A stretch of DNA of 21,083 nucleotides from Xanthomonas cassavae CFBP 4642. GTDB taxonomy: Bacteria; Pseudomonadota; Gammaproteobacteria; Xanthomonadales; Xanthomonadaceae. This document shows positions 1,791-20,995 of the stretch, in pieces. The notes beneath the pieces were generated by a model. It was not told the DNA's origin. It was given only the letters and a program-made list of their open reading frames with translations, and searched no databases. Both the position numbers and the translations under genes were made by a program. The stretch lies in the NCBI RefSeq assembly GCF_000454545.1, contig NZ_CM002139.1, positions 2,458,822 to 2,479,904 on the forward strand, written 5' to 3'. Each line of letters opens with the position of its first letter. Position 1 is the stretch's first letter.

Positions 1791-2719
1791 CTAGAACAGA
1801 TACCGGCGCAGTTCGTCCATATCCAGCAAATCGTCGGCGATTCCGTGCGTCGCGATCAGTTCGCTGTATTGCTGGGTATCGTAAGCGAGGGCGCCACGTA
1901 CCGCTTGCAGTTCCGCCGCCGCGAAGTCCGGAGCTGGCTCGTCGAAAGCGAGTTCGCCACAGGAAAAGACGAATGGAACCGGCTCCGTGTCAGGCACATG
2001 GCCGATCAGACGCGTCAGGAACGTGGCGCGGTAATGCGGCTCCTTCAACCGGCCGAGCGACACCAGTAGAATGTCCTCGGGCTGATAGCGCGCGACGAAC
2101 GCGCGTAAACCGATGTAGTAGAAGCTGGCTTCGAGCATCGACAGGAAGGGGAACTGACGCCGCGACATCAGGAACTGCATTTCGTAGTCGGCGCGTTCGG
2201 TGAAGGTGGTCGTGCGTAGCCGTGTGGTCTCGGCCTGGAAATGGCGTTGCACATGCGGAAAGGACTTGCGTGGAAAGGATAACGCAGTGATGTCTCTCAG
2301 TAAATCCAGGGGGACCACGTCCGAGCGCGAGCCGGCTGGTGTTCTATCAGTGATGCAGCCGCCATGCTGGTGATAATCGGCAAACATTTGCGTAGCCCTA
2401 GCGCCGCCAAGTGCTGCAATCTTCTTAAAGCGATACGCGCTCCAGGCCCGTTCCAGGGGGTTCCTCAGGCACAGGACGATCTTGGTTCGCTGCTCCGGGA
2501 GACGCGCAATCACGTGTGGGCTCATCGCATAGGCGACGCTGGCATCGAGCCAGGGCCGCTCTGCCGGCAATGGTTGTGTCGCACCTTCCGCGAGATAAGT
2601 ATATGGCTCCTTGATGCCAGGTAGGATGAAGCGGGCGAGGCCATTGCTGTCGATCCAGCTGGCCAAGGCTGTGGTACCGCCTTTTTCTACGCCAGCTAAA
2701 AAATGTAATCGGGCTTCAT
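1791..2719 (-). pseudogene. Sulfotransferase-like gene with a one-base frameshift near the start
   Basis: The main frame (TTG at 2666 to 1791, 291 residues) contains KIVLCLRNPLERAWSAYRF. This matches the 3'-phosphate PAPS-binding motif RxPxxRxxSxY of sulfotransferases. A PAPS-loop-like segment (LAGVEKGGTTAL) lies upstream of that TTG in the same frame. A better start is ATG at 2719, preceded by AAGGAAGGA, but it reads MKPDYIF and then stops at TAG. The run at 2698-2703 is six T on the coding strand; seven would join MKPDYIF to LAGVEKGGTTAL and give a 309-residue protein of normal length. The gene is therefore probably frameshifted, unless the homopolymer is a sequencing error. Its role would be to transfer sulfate to a glycan, presumably in the flagellin-glycan island. 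The target is inferred. Confidence 0.8.
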
Positions 2720-2931: not shown

Positions 2932-2972
2932 CTAGAAACAATAAAGAACCATCGCATCGGGGCATAACCGAT
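2932..2972 (-). pseudogene. Detached 3' end of the FkbM methyltransferase gene
   Basis: Read on the minus strand, this segment begins with the 8-bp target duplication and continues as codons for CPDAMVLYCF followed by TAG at 2934-2932. The interrupted gene body at 4045-5194 ends in the same 8 bp (ATCGGTTA at 5187-5194) and in the matching phase. Joining the two gives ...RQHNRLCPDAMVLYCF and a stop. The piece was separated first by insertion of IS copy 1 and then placed on the opposite strand from its gene body by the inversion. Confidence 0.85.
2965..2972 (+). repeat. Target-site duplication TAACCGAT, left partner
   Basis: These eight bases border the left end of IS copy 1. Their partner is not at the right end of that copy. 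It appears in reverse complement (ATCGGTTA) at 5187-5194, next to IS copy 2. Eight bases is the usual duplication length for the IS1595 family. The swapped partner is the signature of inversion between the two IS copies. Confidence 0.9.
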
Positions 2973-4044
2973 CCTGATTAGCCCTGACCATCAGCCGCCT
3001 GTCGCAGGATCTGCGCCGCGCTGGGTGGATGCTGCTGTCACCTGAAGCCAACGAGGTGGCGTGATGAGTATCAATGCCGTGCAGTTCCAAGCGGGATTGT
3101 CGATGCCTGAGTTCTTCGCGTCCTACGGCACCGAAGCCAAGTGCTATCGCGCGCTTTACAAGTGGCGCTGGCCGCAAGGCTTTCGTTGCCCTGTTTGTGC
3201 CGGACGCGTGCGCTCGCGTTTCAAGCGGGGTGCTGCGATCTACTACCAATGCAGCGCGTGCCGGCATCAGACCAGCCTGATTGCAGGCACGATGTTCGAA
3301 GGCACCAAGCTGCCGCTGCGCACCTGGATGCTGGCGTTGCACCTGCTGACCTCGACCAAAACCAACATGGCCGCGCTGGAGTTGATGCGGCATCTGGGCG
3401 TCAACTACAAGACGGCCTGGCGGATGAAACACAAGATCATGCAGGTTATGGCCGAGCGCGAATCCATGCGGAAACTGGCGGGTTTCGTGCAGATCGACGA
3501 TGCCTATCTCGGCGGCGAGCGTAACGGTGGCAAGGCCGGACGCGGATCGGAGAACAAACAAGCGTTCCTGATTGCGGTGCAGACCGATGCCACCTTCACC
3601 GCGCCGCGCTTTGTGGTGATCGAGCCGGTGCGCAGCTTCGACAACACCTCGCTGCAGGACTGGATTGCCCGTCGCTTGGCGCCCGAATGCGAGGTCTACA
3701 CCGATGGGCTGGCCTGCTTCCGCCGGCTAGAAGACGCCGGCCACGCGCACACCACGCTGGACACTGGCGGTGGTCGTGCCGCGACCGAAACGGCCGGTGC
3801 ACGTTGGCTCAACGTGGTGCTGGGCAATCTCAAACGCGCCATCAGTGGCGTGTATCACGCCATCGCGCAAGGCAAATACGCAAGGCGTTACCTGGGAGAA
3901 GCGGCCTATCGTTTTAATCGTCGATTCCGCTTGCGCGAGATGCTGCCACGACTTGCCACGGCCATGATGCAATCCACACCATGCCCAGAGCCGGTTTTAC
4001 GTGCAGCGAGCAATTTTCATGGCTGAGAGTCGGGGCTAATCAGG
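2973..4044 (+). mobile_element. IS1595-family insertion sequence (ISXo type), copy 1
   Basis: The element is 1072 bp with imperfect terminal inverted repeats of about 24 bp. The left end is CCTGATTAGCCCTGACC... (2973-2996). The right end, in reverse complement, is CCTGATTAGCCCCGACT... (4021-4044). The two match at 21 of 24 positions. The flanks differ (TAACCGAT left, AAAATTTA right), so this copy lacks its own duplication. Both flanks reappear inverted at copy 2. It carries one transposase gene and interrupts the 3' end of the methyltransferase gene. The name ISXo5/ISXo2-like is from memory of X. oryzae elements. Confidence 0.92.
3064..4026 (+). CDS. IS1595-family transposase, copy 1
   Basis: This 320-residue protein starts MSINAVQFQAG; a GTG at 3061 one codon earlier is the alternative. 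The N-terminal region has the IS1595 zinc ribbon with CPVCAG near residue 40 and CSACRHQ about 25 residues later. This is followed by helices with the LNTSTK-like segment LLTSTKTNMAALELMRHLGV. The ISXO2-like DDE domain starts at QIDDAYLGGERNGGKAGRG, continues with VYTDGLACF, and ends with a late segment containing RWLNVVLGNLKRAISGVYH. It mobilises the element. The reading frame is intact and identical in translation to copy 2, so the duplication is recent. Confidence 0.93.
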   Translation: MSINAVQFQAGLSMPEFFASYGTEAKCYRALYKWRWPQGFRCPVCAGRVRSRFKRGAAIYYQCSACRHQTSLIAGTMFEGTKLPLRTWMLALHLLTSTKTNMAALELMRHLGVNYKTAWRMKHKIMQVMAERESMRKLAGFVQIDDAYLGGERNGGKAGRGSENKQAFLIAVQTDATFTAPRFVVIEPVRSFDNTSLQDWIARRLAPECEVYTDGLACFRRLEDAGHAHTTLDTGGGRAATETAGARWLNVVLGNLKRAISGVYHAIAQGKYARRYLGEAAYRFNRRFRLREMLPRLATAMMQSTPCPEPVLRAASNFHG

Positions 4045-4052
4045 AAAATTTA
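4045..4052 (+). repeat. Target-site duplication AAAATTTA, partner of the one at 6267-6274
   Basis: This 8-bp sequence follows IS copy 1 and is the reverse complement of TAAATTTT, which follows IS copy 2. It is the duplication originally made by copy 2 and was moved here by the inversion. Confidence 0.88.
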
Positions 4053-5186
4053 TTGTTTGCGGATCGGTTTGCAGATCCGAGATTCGAGTGTTGGCAAAAT
4101 CAGCCAATGTTATTGCCATTGTTGATGACTTCCTGCGCGAGCGTCAGAGTCACATATTCGGAATACCCGTCATCAGCTCGGACACCTGGATCGAGTTGGC
4201 CGTAGGCCAAGGCGATGTGACGTCTTGCATTCTGACTCCAGGCGGAACTGCTTTTCAGCATTTCATTAAAATAGCCAATCAGTGGAACCTGCCAACACTA
4301 CTTCCGTTGCAGTTTTTGCATTTATTGGAAATATGCGGCATCGACCATAGCGGGGAGACTGGCCGCTTTTTCTGGTATGGTTACGAATTCTTCAATTCCA
4401 CCTTTGACAATGTCGATTGCCTAGTTAAATTTACCGACAATCTTGCTGATCAACATTCGCAAATTTCATGGCTATGCATCTTGCTTTATAGGCTAACACT
4501 GAATCCATTTTATCTTGAAGCATGTGCTGTAGGCCATGGCGCAGACGATTTCAACCTCAACTCATACTCCACCAACCGCCAATTCTTCAAGTTCAATGAT
4601 CGAGAGGTTTACGTTGATGGTGGCGCCTTCAACGGCGACACGATCGAGGGTTTCTTGCGCGCATGCAAGGGACAGTTCAAAAGAATCCACTCTTTCGAAC
4701 CATCCAATCAGAATAACAATTTAATCCGCTCGCGCCTCAATTTACTTCAGGATCAATATCTTAAGCCATTGGCACCAGCCATTACTTTGCATGAGAAAGG
4801 GTTGTGGGATAGCAGTACGACATTGAAATTTAACCCAGGACAAATTGTTCCAGATTTCGAAATTCCCGGCTTTGTTCAAACCCAGTCCGCGCACCTAGTG
4901 GAATCGAACATTATCAGCCATATATATGAAAAATCGCGCGAAGAAGATATAGCGATAACCGTGCCGGTCACGACTATTGACGAGGCCACGGAAAGGGCAG
5001 CGACATTCATCAAACTGGAGATCGAGGGGTCCGAGCTCAAGGCGCTGCATGGCGCACGAGAGACAATCCTGAAAAACCGCCCCCAAATGGCGATCTCCGC
5101 TTATCATAAGCCCGAGGATCTGTTGACGCTAACCAATTTCGTTACTGAAATGGAAAAGGACTATGAAATTGGCTTCAGGCAACACA

Positions 5187-5194
5187 ATCGGTTA
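5187..5194 (+). repeat. Target-site duplication ATCGGTTA, partner of the one at 2965-2972
   Basis: This 8-bp sequence precedes IS copy 2 and is the reverse complement of TAACCGAT in front of IS copy 1. It codes for part of the methyltransferase C-terminus and lets the interrupted frame be rejoined. Confidence 0.9.
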
Positions 5195-6266
5195 CCTGAT
5201 TAGCCCCGACTCTCAGCCATGAAAATTGCTCGCTGCACGTAAAACCGGCTCTGGGCATGGTGTGGATTGCATCATGGCCGTGGCAAGTCGTGGCAGCATC
5301 TCGCGCAAGCGGAATCGACGATTAAAACGATAGGCCGCTTCTCCCAGGTAACGCCTTGCGTATTTGCCTTGCGCGATGGCGTGATACACGCCACTGATGG
5401 CGCGTTTGAGATTGCCCAGCACCACGTTGAGCCAACGTGCACCGGCCGTTTCGGTCGCGGCACGACCACCGCCAGTGTCCAGCGTGGTGTGCGCGTGGCC
5501 GGCGTCTTCTAGCCGGCGGAAGCAGGCCAGCCCATCGGTGTAGACCTCGCATTCGGGCGCCAAGCGACGGGCAATCCAGTCCTGCAGCGAGGTGTTGTCG
5601 AAGCTGCGCACCGGCTCGATCACCACAAAGCGCGGCGCGGTGAAGGTGGCATCGGTCTGCACCGCAATCAGGAACGCTTGTTTGTTCTCCGATCCGCGTC
5701 CGGCCTTGCCACCGTTACGCTCGCCGCCGAGATAGGCATCGTCGATCTGCACGAAACCCGCCAGTTTCCGCATGGATTCGCGCTCGGCCATAACCTGCAT
5801 GATCTTGTGTTTCATCCGCCAGGCCGTCTTGTAGTTGACGCCCAGATGCCGCATCAACTCCAGCGCGGCCATGTTGGTTTTGGTCGAGGTCAGCAGGTGC
5901 AACGCCAGCATCCAGGTGCGCAGCGGCAGCTTGGTGCCTTCGAACATCGTGCCTGCAATCAGGCTGGTCTGATGCCGGCACGCGCTGCATTGGTAGTAGA
6001 TCGCAGCACCCCGCTTGAAACGCGAGCGCACGCGTCCGGCACAAACAGGGCAACGAAAGCCTTGCGGCCAGCGCCACTTGTAAAGCGCGCGATAGCACTT
6101 GGCTTCGGTGCCGTAGGACGCGAAGAACTCAGGCATCGACAATCCCGCTTGGAACTGCACGGCATTGATACTCATCACGCCACCTCGTTGGCTTCAGGTG
6201 ACAGCAGCATCCACCCAGCGCGGCGCAGATCCTGCGACAGGCGGCTGATGGTCAGGGCTAATCAGG
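5195..6266 (-). mobile_element. IS1595-family insertion sequence (ISXo type), copy 2
   Basis: The element is 1072 bp, the same length as copy 1 and in the opposite orientation, with the same terminal repeats at 5195-5218 and 6243-6266. Its flanks are ATCGGTTA and TAAATTTT, which do not match each other but match the flanks of copy 1 in inverted form. It was inserted in the 5' part of the methyltransferase gene. With copy 1 it forms a pair of kilobase-long inverted repeats around about 1.15 kb. Confidence 0.92.
5213..6175 (-). CDS. IS1595-family transposase, copy 2
   Basis: The translation is identical to that of copy 1 over all 320 residues, including the zinc-ribbon cysteines and the DDE-domain segments QIDDAYLGG and VYTDGLACF. 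The start is ATG at 6175, with a GTG one codon upstream. The frame is intact, so either copy could supply transposase. Identity in the overlapping shadow frames as well indicates that the two copies are essentially identical in DNA sequence. Confidence 0.93.
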   Translation of the reverse strand: MSINAVQFQAGLSMPEFFASYGTEAKCYRALYKWRWPQGFRCPVCAGRVRSRFKRGAAIYYQCSACRHQTSLIAGTMFEGTKLPLRTWMLALHLLTSTKTNMAALELMRHLGVNYKTAWRMKHKIMQVMAERESMRKLAGFVQIDDAYLGGERNGGKAGRGSENKQAFLIAVQTDATFTAPRFVVIEPVRSFDNTSLQDWIARRLAPECEVYTDGLACFRRLEDAGHAHTTLDTGGGRAATETAGARWLNVVLGNLKRAISGVYHAIAQGKYARRYLGEAAYRFNRRFRLREMLPRLATAMMQSTPCPEPVLRAASNFHG

Positions 6267-6274
6267 TAAATTTT
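6267..6274 (+). repeat. Target-site duplication TAAATTTT, right partner
   Basis: These eight bases follow the right end of IS copy 2. The second copy is found inverted at 4045-4052 beside IS copy 1, as expected after recombination between the two elements. Confidence 0.88.
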
Positions 6275-6405
6275 TGATTTTTAAGGAAGTCCGGTGGCGC
6301 CCGATCAAACCACGCAGGAAAAATTCCATGTGGTTGCGCAAGCGAATCACGAAGTTCACAAAGACATCTCTAATAAGCTGTTGCTTGGAAAAAAAAAGGA
6401 TACAT
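6275..6405 (-). pseudogene. Detached 5' end of the FkbM methyltransferase gene
   Basis: Read on the minus strand, this segment encodes MEFFLRGLIGRHRTSLK from ATG at 6329, with GTG at 6359 and ATG at 6405 as alternative starts. Joining it to the inverted body gives ...RHRTSLK followed by NQKFIVCGSVCRSE, but only if the A tract at 6278-6282 (five A on the coding strand) had one more A. With that base the reconstructed gene from 6329 is exactly 413 codons including the stop. ATG 6405 would be in the same frame only if the nine-T tract just after it (6389-6397) were eight. The real start is undecided. The fragment has lost its gene body and cannot make an enzyme. Confidence 0.65.
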
Positions 6406-6511
6406 AAACACAGGCTCTATTTAGATGATGGGGAGTTTTGATAAAAAAATCGTATGGAAGGCCGGTATATACTTCCAGGTGTTAAGTCTGGGGAATGAGG
6501 CTTTCCACTAG
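6406..6511. other. AT-rich spacer between the acyltransferase and the methyltransferase 5' remnant
   Basis: This short AT-rich spacer follows the last intact gene of the glycan operon. No terminator with a clear stem and T run was found. It may have carried a weak promoter or the ribosome binding site for the methyltransferase. Confidence 0.35.
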
Positions 6512-7129
6512 TCAGGAGAGGACGCGCGCGCCGTCCGGCATAAGGGCGTCATAGAAACATCGGTCAGGCAGTACATCGGGCAACACGGAATGCAGCAGCC
6601 ATTCACAGCGCCGACCAATGCGTGCCTGGCGAGGTGCCACACTGCCACTGCCTAGGGTGCTGCCCTGGCCGATTTGCGCGCCTTGCCCTAGTTGTACGCC
6701 GGCATGCAATGTCACACTGGAGCCTACGCGGACATCCGCCTCAACGATAATTTGGCGATCCAGCCAGCTACCTGCACCAATGCGGCTACGCGGTGCCAGA
6801 TTGCAGCCTGGGCCGATGTATACATTGCCCATCAGTTCCACTCCATCAGCAATGATGGTCTGCGGCGAAATCAGATTAATCGTGCGATAGCCAGCCAATC
6901 TCACCTCGGCGAGCAGCTTATGCCGGGCATAGTTCACCGCGCGCTCGTCCAGCGCTACGAACACTTCGGTCTGTGCCGCAGGAAAACGGGCGAACAGTTC
7001 CTCCAGATCGAAGGTGTGGCGATCAGTGGTCGGCAGTTCGAGCGTGGTGTGTTCCAGGCTACAGGCCTGCGCAGTAGCTTGGGCTTTTGCGAGCGCCGCG
7101 CCATGGCCTAACAACACTAGCGCTTTCAA
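6512..7129 (-). CDS. NeuD/PglD-like sugar acyltransferase with left-handed beta-helix
   Basis: This 205-residue protein begins MKALVLLGHGAALAKA, a short Rossmann-like N-terminal part as in NeuD/PglD enzymes. From about residue 85 it has hexapeptide-type repeats (IIADGVELMGNVYIGPGCNLAPRS and onward) that form a left-handed beta-helix. Such enzymes move acetyl or longer acyl groups from CoA or ACP to an amino or hydroxyl group of a nucleotide sugar. The start overlaps the stop of the Rieske gene by four bases, which indicates translational coupling. It is the last intact gene of the operon. Given the upstream ACP and KAS III genes, it or its paralogue at 8294-8941 may use an acyl-ACP donor; that is inference. 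Confidence 0.82.
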   Translation of the reverse strand: MKALVLLGHGAALAKAQATAQACSLEHTTLELPTTDRHTFDLEELFARFPAAQTEVFVALDERAVNYARHKLLAEVRLAGYRTINLISPQTIIADGVELMGNVYIGPGCNLAPRSRIGAGSWLDRQIIVEADVRVGSSVTLHAGVQLGQGAQIGQGSTLGSGSVAPRQARIGRRCEWLLHSVLPDVLPDRCFYDALMPDGARVLS

Positions 7130-8256
7130 GCAGTCTCTCCCAGCACGTTTTCCCGATACCAGAGATGCTGCTGCACCAGATGCGCTTCGTAGTCACCATG
7201 CATGAACGAATTGGAATAGGGGCCAAGTCCCTGCTGTAGGCGTTCCAGTACTAGCGTGTCTTCGGCGATAACGGTTCGTTCGCCGCGAATCAGCGTACTC
7301 AGCAGCGCGGTAAAGTCGGTGCTCGCGCTCTTGCGACGGGCGGTCATCATCCACAGGTGGTAGTTAGTCACGCCTGGAGACACCGGTTCGTATTGCTGCA
7401 ACAGGAAGTGCTCACCGCGGACGCTGCAGAAGTTGACGTTCGGATAGATGAACCAGTTGTAATAGATATGATCAGCGCCATAGGTGTCGCACAGCGCGTT
7501 GAACCACGATACATAAGGTTGCAGGGGCGCTTTCGTCGGGTAGCTGAGCGTGCTCAGTGCTGGCGCCTGGCCATGTTGAATCAATTGCTTCACGATCGAT
7601 GGCGCATCTGTGGCAGTGCCTGTCGATTTGACCTGTGTCGTCAGGGCGGGCAGGAAGGTCTTCGGATGCACGAATGGGACATGGTTGTAGTCCTTCACGT
7701 TCTCCATATTGAGCTTCCAGTTGTAGTGAACCCGATGCTGGCTATGGATCACCTGCGTGTCCAGGTGCGAGGACGCTTCGCGCAACTGCTGCAGGAAAGG
7801 AGCGGTGAACTGCGTCTCCAGTGGCAACGGTTGCTCAGCCAGGTTGACGAACAACAACCCGCCAACTTCCTCCAGCGCCAACTTGCGCAGGCAGATGCCC
7901 GCACGTTCGTGCTCATCGAAGCGATAGAGCTCGGCGTTGGGCATGGCACGCAGCTCGCCTTCCGGGCCAAACGACCAGGCGTGGTAGGGGCAGACGAGCG
8001 GGCGCTGGCCGACATCGCTGATCTGGATCGCAGACAACCGGTGCGGACATTGGTTAACGAAGGCGCGCACACCTGCGCTGGTTCGCTGCACCAGCACCGG
8101 GATACCTGCGATCGTGCGGGTGAAGAATTGATTGCGCTCGCGCACCATCGTGCTGAAACCAACAAAGTTCCATAGCTGTCCGAACAGGCGCTCGCGTTCC
8201 AACGCGAAGGTCTTTTCGCTGGTGTAGTGCCGCGCGTCCAGCACGTGGCGCGTCAT
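7126..8256 (-). CDS. Rieske non-haem iron oxygenase, alpha-subunit type
   Basis: The 376-residue protein starts at ATG 8256 (MTRHVLDARHY). A longer frame to 8367 would overlap the upstream gene by 74 bases and adds an unconserved-looking Arg-rich stretch. The Rieske [2Fe-2S] ligands are CPH near residues 70-72 and CPYH near 89-92. The mononuclear iron site has NWKLNMENVKDYNHVPFVH with His near 192 and 197 and the bridging Asp near 189. The family hydroxylates or demethylates small molecules, using electrons from a separate reductase. No reductase gene lies in the window. Its place between two sugar acyltransferases suggests oxidation of the glycan or its acyl group, as CMP-sialic acid hydroxylase does. 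The substrate is not known. Confidence 0.88.
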   Translation of the reverse strand: MTRHVLDARHYTSEKTFALERERLFGQLWNFVGFSTMVRERNQFFTRTIAGIPVLVQRTSAGVRAFVNQCPHRLSAIQISDVGQRPLVCPYHAWSFGPEGELRAMPNAELYRFDEHERAGICLRKLALEEVGGLLFVNLAEQPLPLETQFTAPFLQQLREASSHLDTQVIHSQHRVHYNWKLNMENVKDYNHVPFVHPKTFLPALTTQVKSTGTATDAPSIVKQLIQHGQAPALSTLSYPTKAPLQPYVSWFNALCDTYGADHIYYNWFIYPNVNFCSVRGEHFLLQQYEPVSPGVTNYHLWMMTARRKSASTDFTALLSTLIRGERTVIAEDTLVLERLQQGLGPYSNSFMHGDYEAHLVQQHLWYRENVLGETA

Positions 8257-8293
8257 CGCCCGCACCGGCGCGGGCAGTCTGGCGTCCTCATGC

Positions 8294-8941
8294 TCATGAG
8301 CTGGAGACCGGTTTGTTGAAGATCGCGCGTGCCGGGTTGCCGACCACAGTCTGGCCCGGCGCGACATCGTGAAACACTACAGCTCCCATGCCCACCACCG
8401 ATCGTTCGCCGATGGTGATGCCTCGTGCTATCAGGGCTCCGGAATTGATCACCGCGCCATGGCCGACGGTGACGTGGCCGGCGAGCACGCAGCGAGGTGC
8501 GATGTGTGCGTAATCGCCGACCACCACGTCGTGGCCCAGCAACACTTCCTGGTCGATGAAGGCATAGCTGCCGATGCGACAATCGACGCCACAGTTCACG
8601 TCATAGCCGAAATAAGTCGGCCCGTACACGGTGCGTGTGCCGAGGCTGCAGCGGGTGCGGATCGAGACGAACTCGGCTCCCGCTGCCACCAGTGGTGTGA
8701 CCTGACGTTCGCGTGAAAGCGGGTCGCCGATCGCGGCAACGAACAATTGATCCGCACGCGGAGCGAACTCGGCCGGGTGGCCCAGCCAGGGGTAGTACAG
8801 CGCGGCTGGCACAGTGTCTCGGCCACGCTCGTCCAAGAAGCCGGCAATGACCCACTCGATGCCATGGCTATAGTCCACCTGCAGTTGCGCCAAAACTTGG
8901 CGTCCCAATCCGCCGGCTCCGAGGATGACGATCTGCTTCAT
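8294..8941 (-). CDS. NeuD/PglD-family sugar acyltransferase
   Basis: The 215-residue protein starts MKQIVILGAGGLGRQVLAQL, the Rossmann-like nucleotide-sugar-binding module of the NeuD family. It continues with a left-handed beta-helix from about residue 95 (GPTYFGYDVNCGVDCRIGSYAFIDQ and on) that includes the conserved His-containing segment VLLGHDVVVGDYAHIAPRC. It ends with the usual VVGNPARAI tail. The length and domain order are those of complete NeuD/PglD acetyltransferases, which N-acetylate 4-amino sugars or O-acetylate sialic acids. Nine bases separate it from the reductase stop. It is the better candidate for N-acylation of the amino sugar made by the aminotransferase at 11088-12197. 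The acyl donor is unknown. Confidence 0.88.
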   Translation of the reverse strand: MKQIVILGAGGLGRQVLAQLQVDYSHGIEWVIAGFLDERGRDTVPAALYYPWLGHPAEFAPRADQLFVAAIGDPLSRERQVTPLVAAGAEFVSIRTRCSLGTRTVYGPTYFGYDVNCGVDCRIGSYAFIDQEVLLGHDVVVGDYAHIAPRCVLAGHVTVGHGAVINSGALIARGITIGERSVVGMGAVVFHDVAPGQTVVGNPARAIFNKPVSSS

Positions 8942-8950
8942 GTGTGCTCC

Positions 8951-9718
8951 TCAGCTGATTGTCAGGCCGCCGTCCATCACCAGGCTGGTGCCGGTGATCC
9001 AGCGGCTGGCACCGGACAGCAGAAAGATGGCGGCGTTGGCTACGTCGTCGGGTTGCCCGAAACCAAGCGGATAACTGCTGCGTTCGGTCTCCAGCGAGCC
9101 CACCACCTGGGCAGTGGCGTCTAGCAACGGGGTATCGACCAGCGCCGGCGACAGGCAGTTGACGCGGATGTGCCGCTTGACTACTTCCATCGCCAGGCAG
9201 CGCGCGTAGGCGATCAACGCGGCCTTGGAGGCAGAATAGGCACCCACGCCTGCCACGCCGATATGCGCCGCGATCGATGCGATGAACACGATGGCGCCAT
9301 CGGCGGCGATCAGGTTGCGTTTGAGCAGACCCTGGGTCAGCAGAATTGGCGCGTCGACGTTGGTCGCCTGGACCTCGCGTAGGTGAGCCTCACCGACCAT
9401 CCGTGCTGGACATAGCCGCGAGATGCCGGCGCTATGAACCACGCCATGCAGCGGCGCCGAAAGCGAGTCGACGAGCGAAGCGCGCTCAGTGGGCACTGTC
9501 AGGTCGGCACGCAGCGCCTGGTGCGGCCGCTCGCTGATGGCCCGGAGATCAGCCAGGGTGGCGTCCAGGCGTTGCGGATCGCGTCCATTGACGATCAACT
9601 CGCCGCCCATGCGTGCGCAGCCCAGGGCGATCGCGCGGCCCAGCCCTGAACTGGCGCCGCTGACCAGGATGCGCTTATCGGCAAGGCTGAAGGGATTGAA
9701 GGATAGGGAGTCGTTCAC
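8951..9718 (-). CDS. Short-chain dehydrogenase/reductase (FabG-like)
   Basis: The 255-residue protein starts at GTG 9718 (MNDSLSFNPF). The cofactor loop is SGASSGLG at about residues 20-27. The NxAG equivalent is HSAG, and the catalytic residues are Ser near 148, Tyr161 and Lys165 in YSASK. The C-terminus ITGTSLVMDGGLTIS is typical of classical SDRs. In this operon, after an ACP and a KAS III, the simplest role is NAD(P)H reduction of a 3-ketoacyl group to a 3-hydroxyacyl group on the carrier protein. Reduction of a keto-sugar is the alternative. It lies 34 bases downstream of the KAS III stop. Confidence 0.87.
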   Translation of the reverse strand: MNDSLSFNPFSLADKRILVSGASSGLGRAIALGCARMGGELIVNGRDPQRLDATLADLRAISERPHQALRADLTVPTERASLVDSLSAPLHGVVHSAGISRLCPARMVGEAHLREVQATNVDAPILLTQGLLKRNLIAADGAIVFIASIAAHIGVAGVGAYSASKAALIAYARCLAMEVVKRHIRVNCLSPALVDTPLLDATAQVVGSLETERSSYPLGFGQPDDVANAAIFLLSGASRWITGTSLVMDGGLTIS

Positions 9719-9752
9719 GGGATCTCTTTTTCTGCAGCGGCGACCGGCGAGC

Positions 9753-10793
9753 TCAGGATTCGATCAAATCAGGAAACACTGCGCCGTCGATATCCACCAG
9801 GCACGTGCCCCACGACAAGCCAATGCCGAAGCCGCACAGCAGCACGCGCTTGGGCCCGGCTTCCAGTTCCTTGTTGATCCGCGCGGTCATCGTGACCGGC
9901 AGCGAGGCGCCGCTGGTGTTGCCGAAGTCGCGCAGCGTCGAAGGCACTTTTTCCGCCGGCAGGCCGAGCTTCTTGCGAATGGTCTCGTTGATCATGCGGT
10001 TGGCCTGGTGGAACACGAAGTAATCCACCTCCTCCTTGGACACGCCGGTGTAGTCGAGCAGTTTCTGTACCGCCGGCGGCACCCGCTGGGTGGAGAAGCT
10101 CAGCACTGCCACGCCGTCCAGGATCAGGTCCACACCGCGCCGCCAGGGACCATCGGGCCCTTCGCGGAAGGGCATCAGGTGCTGCATTGCGACCGGTTCG
10201 CGGTGGCCGCCGACCGGCAGGATGATCGCCCTGTAGCCGCTGCCATCGCTGTTGAGGTCGAAATGCATCGGCGGCGCGTCGGCGCTGAATTCCAGCGCAG
10301 TGGCGGTGCCGGAGTCGGAGAAGATCGGGTCTTCCAGGTTGGCGCTGCGGTCGCCCACCAGCAGCAGGCCCTTCTTGACGCCGCCGGCGGCGATCATCGA
10401 GCCGAGCAGGTTGATGCCGAACGGGTAGGCCGAGCAGCCCAGGTTGACGTCGAAGGCCACCGTGGCGTGCGACAGGCCCAGCCGGTCCTGCAGGATGATG
10501 GCGGTGGCCGGAATCGGGTAATCCGGCGATTGGGTCACCACGATCAGCGCATCGATCTCCTCGCGCTTCCACTGCAGTTTTTCCAGCAGCACTTCGGTTG
10601 CATCGAACGCCAGGTCCGAAAAGCATTGCCATTCGCTCGCCATGCGCCGGGTCTCGATACCGACGTTGCGCACCAAACGCTCGCGTTCTGAGCGAATCTG
10701 CGGCCGGCAATCGGTGAGGTTGGACACGACCCGCTTCGGCACGCAGGTCGCCATGCCGGCAAAGCGGACGTTGTGCAGCGTGGAGGTCGGCAT
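9753..10793 (-). CDS. 3-oxoacyl-ACP synthase III (FabH-like)
   Basis: The 346-residue protein begins at ATG 10793 (MPTSTLHNVRFAG). A longer frame exists but overlaps the ACP gene and reads as Arg/His-rich out-of-frame sequence. The thiolase-fold catalytic triad is visible as Cys120 in VNLGCSAYPFG, His262 in FHQANR and Asn292 in FGNTSGASLP. KAS III enzymes condense acyl-CoA with malonyl-ACP to give a 3-ketoacyl-ACP. Five bases separate it from the ACP stop, so the two are very likely partners. Within this island it probably makes a short acyl group for a sugar rather than a membrane fatty acid. That role is inferred from context. Confidence 0.92.
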   Translation of the reverse strand: MPTSTLHNVRFAGMATCVPKRVVSNLTDCRPQIRSERERLVRNVGIETRRMASEWQCFSDLAFDATEVLLEKLQWKREEIDALIVVTQSPDYPIPATAIILQDRLGLSHATVAFDVNLGCSAYPFGINLLGSMIAAGGVKKGLLLVGDRSANLEDPIFSDSGTATALEFSADAPPMHFDLNSDGSGYRAIILPVGGHREPVAMQHLMPFREGPDGPWRRGVDLILDGVAVLSFSTQRVPPAVQKLLDYTGVSKEEVDYFVFHQANRMINETIRKKLGLPAEKVPSTLRDFGNTSGASLPVTMTARINKELEAGPKRVLLCGFGIGLSWGTCLVDIDGAVFPDLIES

Positions 10794-10798
10794 GGTGC

Positions 10799-11023
10799 TT
10801 ACGCCTCGGTCAGTTTGTAGAGATCGCCCACGGTGGTGGCGGCAGTGAGATCTTCGCCGGTGATGGTCTTGCCGTACTCCATGTCGAACATGACGATCAC
10901 GCCCAGCGCGGCCAGCGAATCCCACTCCGGCAATTCCAGCAGCACGGTGTCCAGCGTCACCTCCACCGGCTCCTGGAAGTCGGTGGCGGAAAGGAAGTTC
11001 TCGATAAACGTTGCCTGGGTCAT
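10799..11023 (-). CDS. Acyl carrier protein
   Basis: The 74-residue protein starts at ATG 11023 (MTQATFIENFL). It is small and acidic with the phosphopantetheine site at Ser36 in EWDSLAAL, the standard DSL motif. It ends in TTVGDLYKLTEA as in other ACPs. It would carry the growing acyl group for the adjacent KAS III and reductase. It is separate from the housekeeping ACP, as expected for a specialised pathway. The frame is open further upstream to 11110, but that extension overlaps the aminotransferase gene and has no matching sequence. Confidence 0.92.
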   Translation of the reverse strand: MTQATFIENFLSATDFQEPVEVTLDTVLLELPEWDSLAALGVIVMFDMEYGKTITGEDLTAATTVGDLYKLTEA

Positions 11024-11087
11024 GCGATCTCGCCTGGTTGCCTGTTGAAGAGATGGGAGTCTGGAATGCAGGTGCAGCGTGTTGCGA

Positions 11088-12197
11088 TCATGCTGCCTGT
11101 TGACCGGCAATCAGATCGGCAATGGTATCGACCTGGTCGCGGGTCAGGCCGGGAAAGATCGGTAGGCACAATACTTGGGCGGCCACCGAGCGCGCCACCG
11201 GCAGCCACGCCGGCGCCGACGAGGGCAGGGCGCGATACATCGGGAAGTCGCTGATCAATGGATAGAAGTAACGTCGTACCAGGATGCCGTGCTCGCGCAT
11301 CAATTGGTATAGCGCATCGCGCGCCAGCGGGTAGTCGTCCTGCACCAGGATCGGAAAGTACGCATAGTTGGGCGTGGAGTGATCGAGCCGCGCAACGCAA
11401 TGGATGCCGCGAATGTCGCTCAATCGTTGCCGGTACTGCGCATCGATGGTGCTGCGTTGCGCAATGGCCTCGTCGATGTGCTTGAGCTGCAAGAGACCGA
11501 ACGCTGCGCTGATCTCGTTCATCTTGCCGTTGATGCCGGGCGCCACCACCGTGGTCTCGTCGACGAAACCGAAGTTCTTCAGATGCCCGATACGTTGATA
11601 GGTCTTTTCGTCGGGGCACACGATTGCGCCGCCTTCGAAGGTGTTGAACACCTTGGTTGCATGAAAGCTCAACACGCTCAGGTCGCCGTGGCGCAGGATC
11701 GAGCCGCCGTCATCGCGCACCCCGAAGGCGTGTGCGGCGTCGTATATCACCTTGAGGTTGTAGATGTCGGCGATGCGGGTGATGGCGCTGGTGTCGCAGG
11801 CGGTGCCATAGCAATGCACCGGCATGATCGCGGTGGTCTGCGGGGTGATGGCCGCTTCGATCTTGGACGGGTCCATGTTGAGCGTTACCGGGTCGATGTC
11901 CACGAACACCGGGGTAATGCTCTTCCACAGCAACGAATGTGCGGTGGCCACGAACGAGTAGGGCGTGGTGATCACCTCGCCGGTGATGCGCAGCGCCTGC
12001 AAGGCAGTGATCAGGGCGGTGGTGCCGTTGGTCAGCAGTGCCAGGTGCGGGACGCCCAGGTAGGCGCACAGCGCCTGCTCCAATGCCCGATGCATCTCGC
12101 CACCGTTGCTGACGATGCGGCTGCTCCAGATCCGTTCCAGATAGGGCAGGAACTCTTCCAGCGGCGGCAGCAGCGGACTGGTGACGGGGATGGGCAT
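11088..12197 (-). CDS. DegT/DnrJ/EryC1-family sugar aminotransferase
   Basis: The 369-residue protein begins at ATG 12197 (MPIPVTSPLLPPLEEF), the usual start for this family. An ATG at 12275 is too close to the candidate promoter to be likely. The PLP-binding lysine is Lys182 in SFHATKVFNTFEGGA, and the PLP-nitrogen Asp is in YDAAHAFG near residue 153. These enzymes transaminate 3- or 4-keto-6-deoxy nucleotide sugars. VioA-type members make dTDP-viosamine (4-amino-4,6-dideoxyglucose), the sugar of Pseudomonas syringae flagellin glycans. The exact position aminated cannot be read from sequence. It is the first gene of the glycan operon, next to fleQ. Confidence 0.9.
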   Translation of the reverse strand: MPIPVTSPLLPPLEEFLPYLERIWSSRIVSNGGEMHRALEQALCAYLGVPHLALLTNGTTALITALQALRITGEVITTPYSFVATAHSLLWKSITPVFVDIDPVTLNMDPSKIEAAITPQTTAIMPVHCYGTACDTSAITRIADIYNLKVIYDAAHAFGVRDDGGSILRHGDLSVLSFHATKVFNTFEGGAIVCPDEKTYQRIGHLKNFGFVDETTVVAPGINGKMNEISAAFGLLQLKHIDEAIAQRSTIDAQYRQRLSDIRGIHCVARLDHSTPNYAYFPILVQDDYPLARDALYQLMREHGILVRRYFYPLISDFPMYRALPSSAPAWLPVARSVAAQVLCLPIFPGLTRDQVDTIADLIAGQQAA

Positions 12198-12270
12198 CAA
12201 TGCCTCGCTGGTGCGGGTGGATGTCGGGATTCCGCCGCAGCCGATGGCCGCGGGCAGTGTACCCGGAGGA

Positions 12271-12286
12271 AGCAAGCGCTATGCCG
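12271..12286 (-). promoter_or_regulatory. Candidate sigma-54 promoter of the glycan operon
   Basis: Read on the minus strand, the sequence is CGGCATAGCGCTTGCT. It keeps the GG-N10-GC spacing and the TTGCT of the consensus TGGCAC-N5-TTGCW, with mismatches at the first and sixth positions of the -24 element. It lies about 75 bases upstream of the aminotransferase start in the 119-base gap after fleQ. RpoN and FleQ are both encoded just upstream, so the glycan operon may be co-regulated with the flagellum. No experimental support is available here. Confidence 0.5.
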
Positions 12287-12316
12287 GCGAGCGGAACCTC
12301 ACGTGCGTCGGCACGC

Positions 12317-13801
12317 TCAGTTCGCCAACTCGGTCTGTTCGCGGTCGATGCCGTACTTGCGCAGCTTCTCGACCAGGGTGGTGCGGCGCAGGCCTAGCAG
12401 CTGCGCCGCGTGGGCGACCACGCCCTGGGTACGTTCCAGCGCCTCGTTGATCAGCGCCAGTTCGATGTTGGCCATGTGCCCACGCAGGTCGATACCGTCG
12501 TCGGGCAGGCTGGCTGCCGAGGCCGGCTCGGCATCGGTGGGTTTGGGCTGCAGCGTCACCACATTGCTGGGTAGCGCTGTGGCGTCGGTGGGCGCGGCGA
12601 CCAACGCCGGCTCCGGCGGCAACTCGACCGGAATGGACGAGGCAAAATCACCGCGATAGCGCGCCGGCAGATCCTGCACGCGCACCAGTCCACCGGGATG
12701 CAGCACCGCCAGGCGCTCCACCAGGTTGGTCAGCTCGCGCACATTGCCGGGCCAGTCGTAGCTGCGCAGTGCCTGCAAGGCTTCGTCGGCAAAGCGCACT
12801 TCGCCGCGGCCGGTGCGTGCCAGCTGGCCGGCGATGGTCTGCACCAGCATGGCCAGATCGTCAACGCGCTCGCGCAGTGCGGGCATTTCGATGGGGAACA
12901 CGTTGAGACGGTAGAACAGGTCCTCGCGGAACTGCCCGTCGCTGATGCGCGCTTCCAGGTTGCGGTGGGTGGCGGCGATCACGCGCACGTTGCAGCGGAT
13001 GGTCTGGCCACCGCCCACACGCTCGAAACTGCGCTCCTGCAGGACGCGCAGCAACTTGACCTGCATTGGCAGGCTCATGTCGCCGATCTCGTCCAGCAGC
13101 AGGGTGCCGCCTTCGGCCATTTCGAAGCGGCCCTTGCGCGCACTCAGGGCGCCGGTGAAGGCGCCTTTCTCGTGGCCGAAGAGTTCGCTTTCCAGCAGGT
13201 CCGGCGGAATCGCGCCGCAATTGATCGCCACAAACGGGCCATCGCGGCGCGGCGAATGTTGATGGATGGCACGCGCCACCACTTCCTTGCCGGTGCCGGA
13301 TTCGCCCAGGACCAGCACGGTGGTGTCGAATGCGGCCACCTGGTCGATCAGGCGACGCAGCCGCGTCACCGCTTCGCTGTTGCCGGTCGGGCCGGTGTCC
13401 TGCTGTACGCCCGCCTGGTGCTCGGCATCCAGCCGCTTGAGGCTGGCACGGCGCAGCAGCGCTTCCAGCTGCGCATGCCGCAGGGGAGTGTCCAGCGCCC
13501 AGACGTTGGCCTCGTGCAGGCCATGCGATTGCGCAAACTCGCTCGGGCTGCCTTCCATCAGCAGCACGGGGGGAGGCAGCTTGGCGTCGGCCAGCCAGTC
13601 GAAGAATTTGTCTGCCTGCGCGGCGTCCTGCGCCGAGCCCACCATCACCGCCATCCATTCGTCGTGGCGATGACGGCCAGGGTTGATGTCGGCGCCGTCG
13701 GTGACCCAGCGGGGATTGAAGTCCATGAATTCGAGCAGCGAGACGGTGCGCTCGGCGCGCACGGCGTCGCTGTCGATCAACAGAATGCGTGACTCACTCA
13801 T
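12317..13801 (-). CDS. fleQ: Sigma-54-dependent flagellar regulator FleQ
   Basis: The 494-residue protein has three parts. Residues 1-125 form a receiver-like FleQ domain ([20 protein letters not shown]) in which the usual phosphoacceptor position is occupied by a VMVGS segment, so it is probably not phosphorylated. The central AAA+ domain has Walker A GESGTGKE at 166-173 and the sigma-54-contacting GAFTGA at 213-218. The C-terminal Fis-type helix-turn-helix is seen in [21 protein letters not shown]. FleQ activates flagellar promoters with RpoN and binds cyclic di-GMP in Pseudomonas and Xanthomonas. It overlaps the end of the CheY-like gene by eight bases, so the two are co-translated. Confidence 0.95.
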
Positions 13802-14177
13802 TCCTGGCTCCTTCCGTCAGGCCCTCCAGGATTGGCATGACTTCCTGGATATAGGACAGCTTGCTGACAAAATTGTCAGCACCCGCGCGAAGAGCGTGTT
13901 CACGATGCTCGGCATCGTCGAAGTGGCTCGCAATCACAATATACGGCGGATCGTCCTGCGTCTTGATCAGACGCGTTGCCTGCAGGCCGCCCATCTCCGG
14001 CATGGCCAGGTCCATCAGCACGACATTGGGGCGCAGCGACTCAGAGCGCTCGATCGCTTCCAGTCCGTTGGCGGCACTGCCCACGATGTTGAGCCACTCC
14101 ACCTTGCGAAAATGACGCATCGCAGCGTTGATGAAGCCCTCGTGGTCGTCGACCAGCAGCACGGTGAGTTTGCTCAT
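13794..14177 (-). CDS. CheY-like single-domain response regulator
   Basis: The 127-residue protein is a lone receiver domain. It has the acidic pair in LLVDDHEG (residues 10-11), the phosphoacceptor Asp56 in VVLMDLAMP, and the conserved Lys in FVSKLSY. There is no output domain, so it would act by protein contact. The gene lies eight bases after rpoN and overlaps fleQ, placing it in an rpoN-receiver-fleQ operon. Its partner kinase is not in the window. It may tune sigma-54 or FleQ activity; that is inference from position. Confidence 0.9.
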
Positions 14178-14185
14178 AGTAGTCC

Positions 14186-15589
14186 TTATCCCGCTCGCGC
14201 GAGCAGCGGTTTGGTGGTGCGGCGGCGCTCGCGGGCCGGGGCGATATCCAGTTGTTCGCGGTACTTGGCCACGGTCCGGCGCGCAATATTAACGCCCTGA
14301 CGCGACAGCAGGCCGGCAATGGCTTCGTCGGCCAGCGGCCGGCCGGCCGGCTCGCTCTCGATCAGGCGGCGCACCATGGCCTTGACCGCCTGGCCGGAGA
14401 CGCTGGCGCCTTCCAGGCGCACCGCGAAGAAGTGCTTGAGTTCGAAGGTGCCGCGCGGAGTCTGCAGGTACTTGCCGGTGGTGATGCGCGAAATCGTCGA
14501 TTCGTGCATGCCGATCTCGTCGGCGATTTCCTTCAGGGTCAATGGCGCCATGGCTTCCTCGCCGCGGGCCAGGAAGGCGGCCTGGCGCTCGACGATGGCA
14601 CGGGTGGCGCGCAGCAGGGTTTCGTAGCGCATCGACAGGCCACGGGTCAGCCAGCGGGCTTCCTGCAGCATGTCGCGCAGCGGCTGGGCCGCGTCACCGG
14701 CATCGGCCAGCGCGCGTTCGTGCACCGGGTTGATGCTGACCCGATGGGTGGTGGCCGGGTTCAGCGCCACGCGCCAGCTTCCGTCGGCATGCCAGGCGAG
14801 CACGTCCGGGATCACGCTGGCATTGCTTTCCTGCAGCAGGTCGTCGCCGGGGCGTGGTTGCAGCGACAGGATCAGCCGCACCGCCTCGCGCGCATCGTCC
14901 ACTTCGGCGTCGTGCGCGCGCGCCAGCAGTGCGTAGTCGTGGCTGGCCAGCAGGTCCAGATCGCCGGCCAGGATGCGCGCGGCGAGGTGGCGGGCCGGCA
15001 CGCGGCCGGGCAGGGCGCTCAGCTGCGCCTGCAGGCACTCGCGCAGGTCGCAGGCGGCCAGGCCGGCGGGGTCGCCGTGCAGCAGGCGCTGGCGGACCGC
15101 TTCGACGGCCTGCGCAGTCATCCCCAACCGCGTGGCGCCAAGCTGCTGCAGCGTGGGCAGTGCGTCGGCCAGGTAGCCGGCGTCGTCGGTGTGCTCCAGC
15201 CAGAACGCAGCGGCCCCCAACGCCGCCTCGTCCAGGTCCAGCGCCAGTTCGCGCAGGATGCGCACGTGCGGGTCGGTGGATTCGCCGGCTGCCACGCGCT
15301 GCATGCGGTCGTCGTCGCCCTCGTTCCAACTGCTGCTCTGCACGTCCCACATCGTGCTTTCCGGCAGCTCGTCGAACGCGGCGACATCGGTGGCGCCATC
15401 GTCGTTGGTGGCCGCCTCGTCCCCGTGATCGGCCAGCTCTTCCAACTCCAGCAACGGATTGGTTTCCAGCGCGCGACGAATTTCCAACTCCAACTGCATG
15501 CCGTCCAGTTGCAACAGACGGATCGACTGCAGCAGCTGTGGGGTGAGGTGCAGTTGCTGGCCAAGCTGGGCGGAAATAGTCGTCTTCAT
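14186..15589 (-). CDS. rpoN: RNA polymerase sigma-54 factor RpoN
   Basis: The 467-residue protein starts at ATG 15589 (MKTTISAQLGQQLHLTPQ). Region I is Gln/Leu-rich (LLQSIRLLQLDGMQLELEI), followed by an acidic region II (residues about 50-100). The core-binding and DNA-binding domains follow, with DEIGMHESTISRITTGKYLQTPRG and the RpoN box ARRTVAKYRE near residue 440. Xanthomonas carries two rpoN paralogues, and the flagellar-cluster copy is usually called rpoN2. It is needed for transcription of the early flagellar genes together with FleQ. The gene is intact. Confidence 0.96.
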   Translation of the reverse strand: MKTTISAQLGQQLHLTPQLLQSIRLLQLDGMQLELEIRRALETNPLLELEELADHGDEAATNDDGATDVAAFDELPESTMWDVQSSSWNEGDDDRMQRVAAGESTDPHVRILRELALDLDEAALGAAAFWLEHTDDAGYLADALPTLQQLGATRLGMTAQAVEAVRQRLLHGDPAGLAACDLRECLQAQLSALPGRVPARHLAARILAGDLDLLASHDYALLARAHDAEVDDAREAVRLILSLQPRPGDDLLQESNASVIPDVLAWHADGSWRVALNPATTHRVSINPVHERALADAGDAAQPLRDMLQEARWLTRGLSMRYETLLRATRAIVERQAAFLARGEEAMAPLTLKEIADEIGMHESTISRITTGKYLQTPRGTFELKHFFAVRLEGASVSGQAVKAMVRRLIESEPAGRPLADEAIAGLLSRQGVNIARRTVAKYREQLDIAPARERRRTTKPLLARAG

Positions 15590-15747
15590 AGAAGCGCTTC
15601 CGAAGGGCACTGCACGCAGCAGCGATGGAACGCATCTTGCAGGACAAAGCGACGGGTTTCTAATCGGGGAGTTGGGTGAGGTGGCTCGTGATTTTCCCGA
15701 CAGCGTGTGGGGAATCCCCTGACGTTTTTGGCGAACTGAAGCGTGCC

Positions 15748-15763
15748 TGACGGAATCCCGTCA
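15748..15763. promoter_or_regulatory. Short inverted repeat upstream of rpoN
   Basis: TGACGG-AATC-CCGTCA forms a perfect six-base stem with a four-base loop in the gap between the response regulator stop and rpoN. On the plus strand it is followed by CTGTTTT, but no plus-strand gene ends here. It could be an operator, or part of a weak terminator for the regulator gene at 15838-16470. The function is unknown. Confidence 0.3.
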
Positions 15764-15837
15764 CTGTTTTAGGCCGACGTGGCCCGAATGCACCTTTCAC
15801 CATCCTGACAGCCGGGCAAACAGCCTGCGGGAGTTGC

Positions 15838-16470
15838 TCAGACCAGCTCGTTGTGGTGCTTGGCCGCCAGCAGCACCAGATCGTTCGCACGCCGGCAGCC
15901 CAGCGACTCCATCATGCGCGCGCGATGGGTTTCCACCGTCTTGACGCTGATGCCAAGGTCTGCAGCGATTTCCTTGTTGCTCTGGCCGCGACCGATCTCG
16001 CGCAGGATCTCGCGCTGGCGCGGCGACAGGGCCGCGATACCGACCGGTTTCTCGCGGCCCAGCATCGGGGCGATCATCTTGGAAGAAATCTGCGGGCTCA
16101 GGAACACCTGGCCGGCGGCCGCGGCGCGCAGCGCCAGTTCCAGCTCCAGCGGGGCGGCATCCTTGACCACGAAGCCGACGGCGCCACGATCGAGCGCGTC
16201 GCGCACATGCACCGGGTCGTCGTGCATGGACATCATCACCACATGCGTGCGTGGCGCGGCGCGCAGCACATCGGTCATGGCGTCCAGTCCGCTGCGCCCG
16301 GGCAGCGACAGGTCCATCAGCACCAGATCGGGGCGATGCAGGGATGTCATATCCAGGGCTTGTTGCGCGTTGCTCGCCTCGCCGACGACATCGATGCCGG
16401 CGAAGGTTTGCAGCAGCCTGGACAGGCCTGCACGGACAAGGGTGTGATCGTCGACGATGATGACTCGCAC
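15838..16470 (-). CDS. LuxR/FixJ-type response regulator
   Basis: The 210-residue protein starts at GTG 16470 (VRVIIVDDHTLVRAG). The frame is open upstream, but the receiver fold begins exactly here. The N-terminal receiver has Asp53 in LVLMDLSLPG and the Lys in FVVKDAAP. The C-terminal LuxR helix-turn-helix runs from LSPRQREILREIGRGQSNKE to VKTVETHRARMMESLG. It would bind DNA when phosphorylated by an unlinked kinase. It sits between the PilZ-like gene and rpoN in the flagellar cluster. Its targets are not apparent from the sequence. Confidence 0.9.
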   Translation of the reverse strand: MRVIIVDDHTLVRAGLSRLLQTFAGIDVVGEASNAQQALDMTSLHRPDLVLMDLSLPGRSGLDAMTDVLRAAPRTHVVMMSMHDDPVHVRDALDRGAVGFVVKDAAPLELELALRAAAAGQVFLSPQISSKMIAPMLGREKPVGIAALSPRQREILREIGRGQSNKEIAADLGISVKTVETHRARMMESLGCRRANDLVLLAAKHHNELV

Positions 16471-16539
16471 GGCGCAGAAGGGACCTTTTTCGGTATAGGG
16501 CACCTTAGCCGACCAGGCGCCTGACGCCAACTGGCAGCG

Positions 16540-17106
16540 TCAGCGCTGGCGCCTGGCCTCGGCGATCTGGCGGCGGTGCAAACGAAACAGATGACGTTCC
16601 AGAGCATCCTGCAACCCAGGTGCAAGCGGTGCGAAGCGCAGCCACACCCACTGATCGTGACCGTCGTTCGCGCTTGCCAGCACCTGTGCTGGAAGCTGTA
16701 CAAGTTCAGGAAGCCAGTCGGACGGTTGCAGGCACACCACGCCCGTGGTGCCCGCCGCATGGCTGGTTGCGCAATTCAGCCGGATGCCGCGCACCGACCA
16801 GTGCACCAGGTTCTGGATCAGGCCACTGTCGCCCTGGCGCACCAGGCGGCCGATCAGCGCCAGCATCAGATCGAGCTTGGCGTCCATGCGCTGCACCAGC
16901 AGCGGCAGTTCGCCGCGGTCTTCGCTGGCTTCTTCGCTGCGCAGGTCCTCGACCTGGCCAAGACTGCGCAGCAGGGTTTCCGCGGCACTGGGGGCGCCGG
17001 CGTCGCCACCGACGTTGAAGCCGGCCGGCAGGCGCAATTGGCAGCTGAGCGTGTCGGCAAACAGCTCGGCCTCTGCCGCCGGCGCGAGTGTGCCGAGCGC
17101 GGACAT
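16540..17106 (-). CDS. PilZ-like domain protein with an N-terminal helix
   Basis: The 188-residue protein has a long amphipathic helix around residues 65-92 (LVQRMDAKLDLMLALIGRLV) and then a beta-rich segment with NLVHWSVRGIRLN. That segment resembles the (D/N)xSxxG turn of PilZ domains, but the RxxxR c-di-GMP-binding motif is not clearly present. Xanthomonas has a known tetrameric, non-canonical PilZ protein built on such a helix, and this may be the same family. The start codon overlaps the stop of the FliT-like gene (TGATG), which indicates coupled translation. It probably links flagellar regulation and second-messenger signalling without binding c-di-GMP itself; that is inference. Confidence 0.7.
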   Translation of the reverse strand: MSALGTLAPAAEAELFADTLSCQLRLPAGFNVGGDAGAPSAAETLLRSLGQVEDLRSEEASEDRGELPLLVQRMDAKLDLMLALIGRLVRQGDSGLIQNLVHWSVRGIRLNCATSHAAGTTGVVCLQPSDWLPELVQLPAQVLASANDGHDQWVWLRFAPLAPGLQDALERHLFRLHRRQIAEARRQR

Positions 17107-17399: not shown

Positions 17400-17407
17400 G
17401 GTTGGAC

Positions 17408-17821: not shown

Positions 17822-17925
17822 GGATGACTCCTCAATGGGCTGACCTTCGCGGGTCCCGGAGCGCTGCGCTCCTGCGACGACGCTCCTGCCGACAGGCAAG
17901 GCCGAAATCACGATAGGCCCTTCTT

Positions 17926-17953: not shown

Positions 17954-17971
17954 GGATCTGCATCACGGAAA

Positions 17972-19297: not shown

Positions 19298-19353
19298 GGT
19301 GCATTCCTCGTCTGGGCGTCCGAAACAGAAGGACGCGTGGGATTACGAAGCGG

Positions 19354-20994: not shown

Positions 20995-20995
20995 G

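What the first reader, a model, noticed from the sequence alone, without database searches (positions are those of the whole stretch)
2932..6405. A glycan methyltransferase gene split by two IS copies and then inverted between them
The 8-bp flanks of the two 1072-bp elements do not match within each copy. They do match crosswise in reverse complement: TAACCGAT (2965-2972) with ATCGGTTA (5187-5194), and AAAATTTA (4045-4052) with TAAATTTT (6267-6274). This is the expected result of two independent insertions followed by homologous recombination between the inverted copies. Coding evidence agrees: the FkbM body at 4045-5194 lacks its C-terminus, and the missing codons (CPDAMVLYCF, stop) are on the opposite strand at 2932-2964 in the matching phase. 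The body once pointed the same way as the rest of the minus-strand island.
Basis: partly seen in the sequence, partly recalled or inferred. Interest (0 to 1): 0.85.

Follow-up and report, generated by a model that had tools for sequence, protein, structure and literature searches.

The report
Sugar-methylating gene broken and flipped
A jumping DNA element sits in two places inside one sugar-modifying gene of a Xanthomonas bacterium and the stretch between the two copies is turned around; the gene is broken, and a second, separate flip by the same kind of element in another Xanthomonas suggests that it may make such inversions by itself.

Summary
Two identical 1072-bp IS1595-family elements (2973-4044 +, 5195-6266 -) split an FkbM-type methyltransferase gene into three pieces. 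Their 8-bp flanks match crosswise, not within each copy. Placed separately, the pieces lie side by side in five relatives, with the middle piece reversed against its neighbours. Three of the five have one intact 436-aa frame and X. bonasiae the same with a longer start; X. phaseoli has the gene in the same place on the operon strand. So the deposited sequence is inverted relative to the relatives.

The proposed route (two insertions, then homologous recombination) is not the only one: one-step intramolecular replicative transposition leaves the same scar. A second crossed pair of this IS type lies in a one-contig genome (G020) with three full copies listed, which favours the one-step route. 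Caveat: 16 of 34 copies in the home assembly sit beside N gaps, so mis-orientation of the 1.15-kb piece is not excluded. IS-made inversion and gene loss are known kinds; interest is modest.

The parts
2932..2972 (-). 3' end piece of the FkbM gene (last codons and stop), including the 8-bp site
   Evidence: In X. phaseoli (L012), X. pisi (L010), G007 (L017) and G020 (L015) it lies directly after the body, in the body's direction; the X. bonasiae frame ends WPDAMVLYCF
2965..2972 (.). 8-bp flank TAACCGAT, partner of 5187-5194
2973..4044 (+). IS1595-family element, copy A (1072 bp)
3061..4026 (+). transposase ORF of copy A (321 aa; DDE_Tnp_IS1595, Zn_ribbon_IS1595)
4045..4052 (.). 8-bp flank AAAATTTA, partner of 6267-6274
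4045..5194 (+). body of the FkbM gene, inverted relative to both end pieces
4088..5203 (+). remaining 371-aa ORF in the body; Methyltransf_21/FkbM domain; both ends missing
5187..5194 (.). 8-bp flank ATCGGTTA, partner of 2965-2972
5195..6266 (-). IS1595-family element, copy B (1072 bp, identical to A)
5213..6178 (-). transposase ORF of copy B (321 aa)
   Evidence: same translation as copy A
6267..6274 (.). 8-bp flank TAAATTTT, partner of 4045-4052
6267..6405 (-). 5' end piece of the FkbM gene
   Evidence: lies directly before the body, in the body's direction, in all five relatives

Best explanation
Shown: an FkbM methyltransferase gene (436 aa in intact relatives) in a glycan island next to flagellar genes is broken by an IS1595-family (ISXO2-like) element present in two inverted copies, and the middle of the gene is inverted between them in the deposited sequence. 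Inferred and committed to: one copy inserted first (8-bp duplication at one site); then the same element transposed replicatively into a second site about 1.15 kb away in the trans configuration. That one step made the second copy, inverted the DNA between, and left one copy of each 8-bp duplication at each element. The gene is not whole in either orientation of the middle piece; the 1072-bp inverted repeats may let RecA flip it further.
For: Crossed 8-bp flanks. In five of five relatives with the full body the 5' piece lies in opposite relative orientation to the window; the 3' piece was placed by DNA match in four of five and by frame end in the fifth. The 9 placed junctions all fit an 8-bp overlap: 3 directly (one junction each in X. 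phaseoli, X. pisi, G007), 6 after extending alignment ends by 1 to 37 bases. An independent crossed pair in G020, a one-contig genome with no N in the 20 kb fetched: copies 764 bp apart, 1 mismatch between them, duplications AAAACCGA/TCGGTTTT and TAAACTCT/AGAGTTTA; its middle piece is reversed against both flanks in G023 and G015, with an 8-bp overlap at one junction. Three full copies are listed in G020, the third about 93% identical to the pair; two of three so close by chance: about 0.002. Read in IS orientation, all four sites have 5' CA and 3 of 4 have 3' TG, like 16 of 29 and 17 of 29 ordinary insertions. The footprint fits the trans pathway drawn in PMC5142620 (legend).
Against: Nothing here shows that IS1595 elements transpose replicatively, and the passages that I read do not say so. 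20 of 29 readable home copies and 9 of 9 G021 copies are simple insertions, so inversion is at most a side route. With 34 copies, about 0.5 pair this close is expected by chance, and the body is AT-rich (46% GC against 64% for window 7126-21083), as are the duplications (66% AT), so two independent hits are plausible. Two neighbouring inverted pairs in G021 have matching, uncrossed flanks. In the G020 case the second junction has about 270 unmatched bases in the relatives and the left flank matches over only 47 bases.
Confidence: 0.45

Rival explanations
1. Two independent insertions in inverted orientation, then RecA-dependent homologous recombination between the 1072-bp copies inverted the body. 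The body would keep flipping and a culture may be a mixture.
For: Same crossed-flank footprint. Perfect 1072-bp inverted repeats 1150 bp apart are a good recombination substrate (established knowledge). About 0.5 close pair is expected among 34 copies. Uncrossed close inverted pairs exist in G021, so neighbouring insertions do occur.
Against: Needs three events. In G020 the two nearly identical copies are a close pair and the only other full copy listed is about 93% identical, so two independent hits are improbable there.
Confidence: 0.34
2. Assembly mis-orientation: both insertions are real, but the scaffolder or gap closer placed the small unique piece between two identical repeats backwards.
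For: 16 of 34 copies of this IS sit beside runs of N, in a pattern of contig tails of about 100 bp into the IS around a collapsed copy. The window is one gap-free contig between NNN (C6:2458819-2458821) and 100 N (C6:2479905-2480004). Two pairs of copies share an identical 480-bp flank. The piece is only 1150 bp.
Against: 20 of 29 readable copies join matching flanks, so joins across the IS are mostly right. No N inside the window. A crossed pair exists in an independent one-contig genome.
Confidence: 0.2
3. A functional invertible switch (phase variation) of a glycan-modifying gene.
For: Inverted repeats flank a coding segment, as in recombinational switches.
Against: In both orientations the gene stays interrupted by two 1072-bp elements, so neither state gives a whole protein. 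The repeats are transposable elements found 34 times in the genome. Of 10 window ORFs scanned with Pfam, of 79 listed, only the IS transposase is a recombinase-like enzyme; the other ORFs were not scanned.
Confidence: 0.01

Closest known systems
Intramolecular replicative transposition in trans (as drawn for IS26 and other replicative elements)
   Same: Inverted DNA bracketed by inverted IS copies; target duplication in inverted orientation with one copy at each IS (Fig. 1 legend of PMC5142620; passage of PMC7986276)
   Different: The element is of the IS1595 family; replicative transposition is not demonstrated for it here
IS1595 family, ISXO2-like
   Same: DDE_Tnp_IS1595 and zinc-ribbon domains, one transposase ORF, 8-bp duplications (family description in passages of PMC8101967)
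   Different: An ordinary member by these tests; inversions by this family were not described in the passages that I read
Homologous recombination between inverted IS copies
   Same: Would give the same crossed flanks
   Different: Needs a prior second insertion
FkbM-family methyltransferases (PF05050/TIGR01444)
   Same: Domain in the body and in three 436-aa relatives scanned
   Different: This copy is in three pieces

Membership tests
IS1595-family insertion sequence | Transposase with DDE_Tnp_IS1595 domain (and zinc ribbon) | tested here: met
   PF12762 E 1.4e-38, PF12760 E 3.7e-14; NF033547 194.4 bits over cut-off 75
IS1595-family insertion sequence | 8-bp target duplications | tested here: met
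   20 of 29 readable copies in the home genome, 9 of 9 in G021
IS1595-family insertion sequence | Terminal inverted repeats | tested here: met
   Both ends begin CCTGATTAGCCC when read inward
IS-made adjacent inversion | Inverted copies with crossed target duplications | tested here: met
   second case
IS-made adjacent inversion | DNA between copies inverted against IS-free relatives | tested here: met
   five relatives; second case in two relatives
IS-made adjacent inversion | Dependence on transposase and independence of RecA | not testable with these tools
   needs a laboratory transposition assay
FkbM methyltransferase | Methyltransf_21/FkbM domain | tested here: met
   relatives
FkbM methyltransferase | Whole open frame | tested here: not met
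   three pieces on two strands

The most novel reading that the evidence does not exclude
IS1595/ISXO2-type elements of Xanthomonas carry out intramolecular replicative transposition and so make short local inversions (and probably adjacent deletions) by themselves, as IS26 does, in addition to ordinary insertions.
Probability: 0.45. Interest if true: 0.45.

Novelty: new member of a known kind. Interest (0 to 1): 0.3.

Why it matters
It shows one glycan-modifying gene lost by IS action and gives two natural cases, in two Xanthomonas genomes, in which the same IS type lies at an inversion with crossed target duplications. If the one-step route is right, this IS family reshapes genomes locally without host recombination. 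It also warns that small IS-flanked pieces in gapped assemblies need their orientation checked.

Tried and rejected
Phase-variation switch: rejected, because the gene is interrupted in either orientation. Chance 8-mers: rejected. A second FkbM body in the home genome: none listed (1 match). Naming the strain: not achieved. The closest held genome at the 12317-13801 gene is G017 at 95%. X. hortorum was a lead from a plasmid hit; I saw passages only of PMC9062649 and PMC8995068 and could not identify the strain from them. Other mismatched IS copies: L025 lies at a site whose flanks are about 8-10 kb apart in three genomes (its right flank contains a repeat); L003 and L008 gave no two-sided mapping; the other four were not tested.

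Literature: searches. On the IS1595 mechanism: 8 papers listed and 2; passages seen of PMC7986276, PMC3281130, PMC8101967 and PMC9366087, the other six not opened; nothing seen on cointegrates or inversions by this family. Siguier et al. 2009 on the family appears only in reference lists. PMC11708052: abstract and passages; the word inversion does not occur in it.
Full report
What is there. The window contains two copies of a 1072-bp element in inverted orientation, 2973-4044 (+) and 5195-6266 (-), with no difference between them. Each has one 321-aa transposase ORF; copy A was scanned and has the IS1595 zinc-ribbon and DDE domains. The home genome (7 contigs, 5.27 Mb) gives 34 copies or copy-like hits at over 99% identity, 19 over the full 1072 bp and 15 over 1021-1026 bp. 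Between the two window copies lie 1150 bp with a 371-aa ORF carrying an FkbM methyltransferase domain.

Flanks. The 8-bp flanks of each window copy differ, but match crosswise as exact reverse complements. Of the 34, 20 have matching 8-bp flanks, 7 do not match, 2 (this pair) are crossed, and 5 have an unreadable end. None of the 7 forms a crossed pair; in 2 of the 7 one flank is identical over 480 bp to that of another copy.

Ancestral state. In the genus search 8 of 35 genomes match: the home genome, 4 over the full body, 3 over short stretches; 27 have no match. A more distant sixth, Methylovorus mays, matches at 64% protein identity; of its DNA only the body was placed, the 3' piece giving a 23-base match at the expected spot with E 0.16. 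In all five relatives the 5' piece lies before the body in the body's direction; in four the 3' piece was placed directly after it by DNA match, and in X. bonasiae by the end of the frame. The nine placed junctions all fit an 8-bp overlap, as expected for target duplications: three directly, six after extending alignment ends by 1 to 37 bases. X. pisi, G007 and G020 have a single 436-aa frame, X. bonasiae the same with a longer possible start (442 aa). X. phaseoli has the gene in the same place and on the operon strand (94.6% over 2738 bp on the 5' side), but in two overlapping frames of 266 and 236 aa.

Mechanism. Two routes leave this footprint. (a) Two insertions and recombination between the copies. 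(b) One insertion, then intramolecular replicative transposition in trans, which inverts the DNA between IS and target, makes the second, inverted copy, and puts one target duplication at each copy. The Fig. 1 legend of PMC5142620 states this (passage); PMC7986276 says that intramolecular replicative transposition gives deletion or inversion (passage).

A second case. In G020, which is one contig and has no N in the 20 kb fetched, two copies of this IS (96% to the window copy; 1 mismatch between the two) lie inverted, 764 bp apart, with crossed 8-bp flanks. In G023 and G015 the middle piece matches at 90-91% and is reversed against both flanks; on one side the placements overlap by exactly 8 bp, though the left flank matches over only 47 bp, and on the other side about 270 bp have no match. 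Three full copies are listed in G020, the third about 93% identical to the pair; the tool scored 40 of the candidates of its first look, so this is a lower bound. By chance two of three would be so close with probability about 0.002. This favours (b) for G020 and makes (b) my choice for the window, at moderate confidence. Against it: most readable copies are ordinary insertions; two neighbouring inverted pairs in G021 have matching flanks, as have 9 of 9 full copies there; about 0.5 close pair is expected by chance in the home genome; and the body is AT-rich (46% GC against 64% for window 7126-21083), like the 29 ordinary target duplications (66% AT), so it may simply be a good target.

Assembly caution. 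16 of the 34 copies lie directly beside runs of N, in the pattern of a collapsed repeat placed in gaps. The window is one gap-free contig between two gaps. The identity of the copies therefore says little, and the orientation of a 1.15-kb piece between two identical inverted repeats could be a scaffolding mistake. I put this at 0.2; the two insertions would then still be real, but not the inversion.

Function. The body, its operon neighbours (aminotransferase, FabH-like, SDR, NeuD-like and hexapeptide transferases, Rieske oxygenase) and the flagellin gene at 19570-20838 suggest a surface-glycan, probably flagellin-modification, island; the link to flagellin is inference from position. The gene is not whole in either orientation, so the simple reading is gene loss. 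The body ORF starts 61 bp after the end of the copy A transposase ORF on the same strand, so a truncated product could be transcribed; not tested.

Verdict. Observation confirmed; inversion relative to relatives confirmed in the deposited sequence; route undecided between two known mechanisms, with a lean to the one-step route; orientation in the living chromosome unproven. Ordinary in kind, with a small mechanistic lead.

Noticed in passing
window 1-21083 (G000:C6:2458822-2479904): The window is exactly one gap-free contig between NNN and a 100-N gap in a scaffolded assembly.
   Followed up: partly
window 6267-9000: This part is 94.6% identical to X. phaseoli over 2738 bp, while the gene at 12317-13801 is 89% to G027 (taken to be that genome) and 95% to G017; in the 40 kb of G017 fetched there is no match leftward of window 8967: a mosaic, probably exchanged glycan island.
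   Followed up: partly
L012 5830-7138 (X. phaseoli CP094243): The relative's FkbM gene is in two overlapping frames (266 and 236 aa), so this gene may be lost repeatedly, or the sequence has an error.
   Followed up: no
L025 (G000:C6:1814640): IS copy with non-matching flanks; the flanks lie about 8-10 kb apart in G017, G020 and G034: an IS-associated deletion is likely.
   Followed up: partly
G000:C6:2002668-2005683 and 2423647-2427062: A second IS, 75% identical, lies 0.9 and 1.3 kb from a copy of the main IS in two of its four full-length places: possible insertion hot spots.
   Followed up: partly
G021:C1:4246359-4253723 and 2913063-2917588: Five of nine nearly identical copies of this IS are clustered within a few kb, all with matching 8-bp flanks.
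   Followed up: yes
L006/L032 and L034/L038: Pairs of IS copies share an identical 480-bp flank: duplicated DNA or contig re-use by the assembler.
   Followed up: no
window 1791-2666 (-): ORF with only weak sulfotransferase similarity (PF00685 E 0.0036, below the curated cut-off).
   Followed up: no
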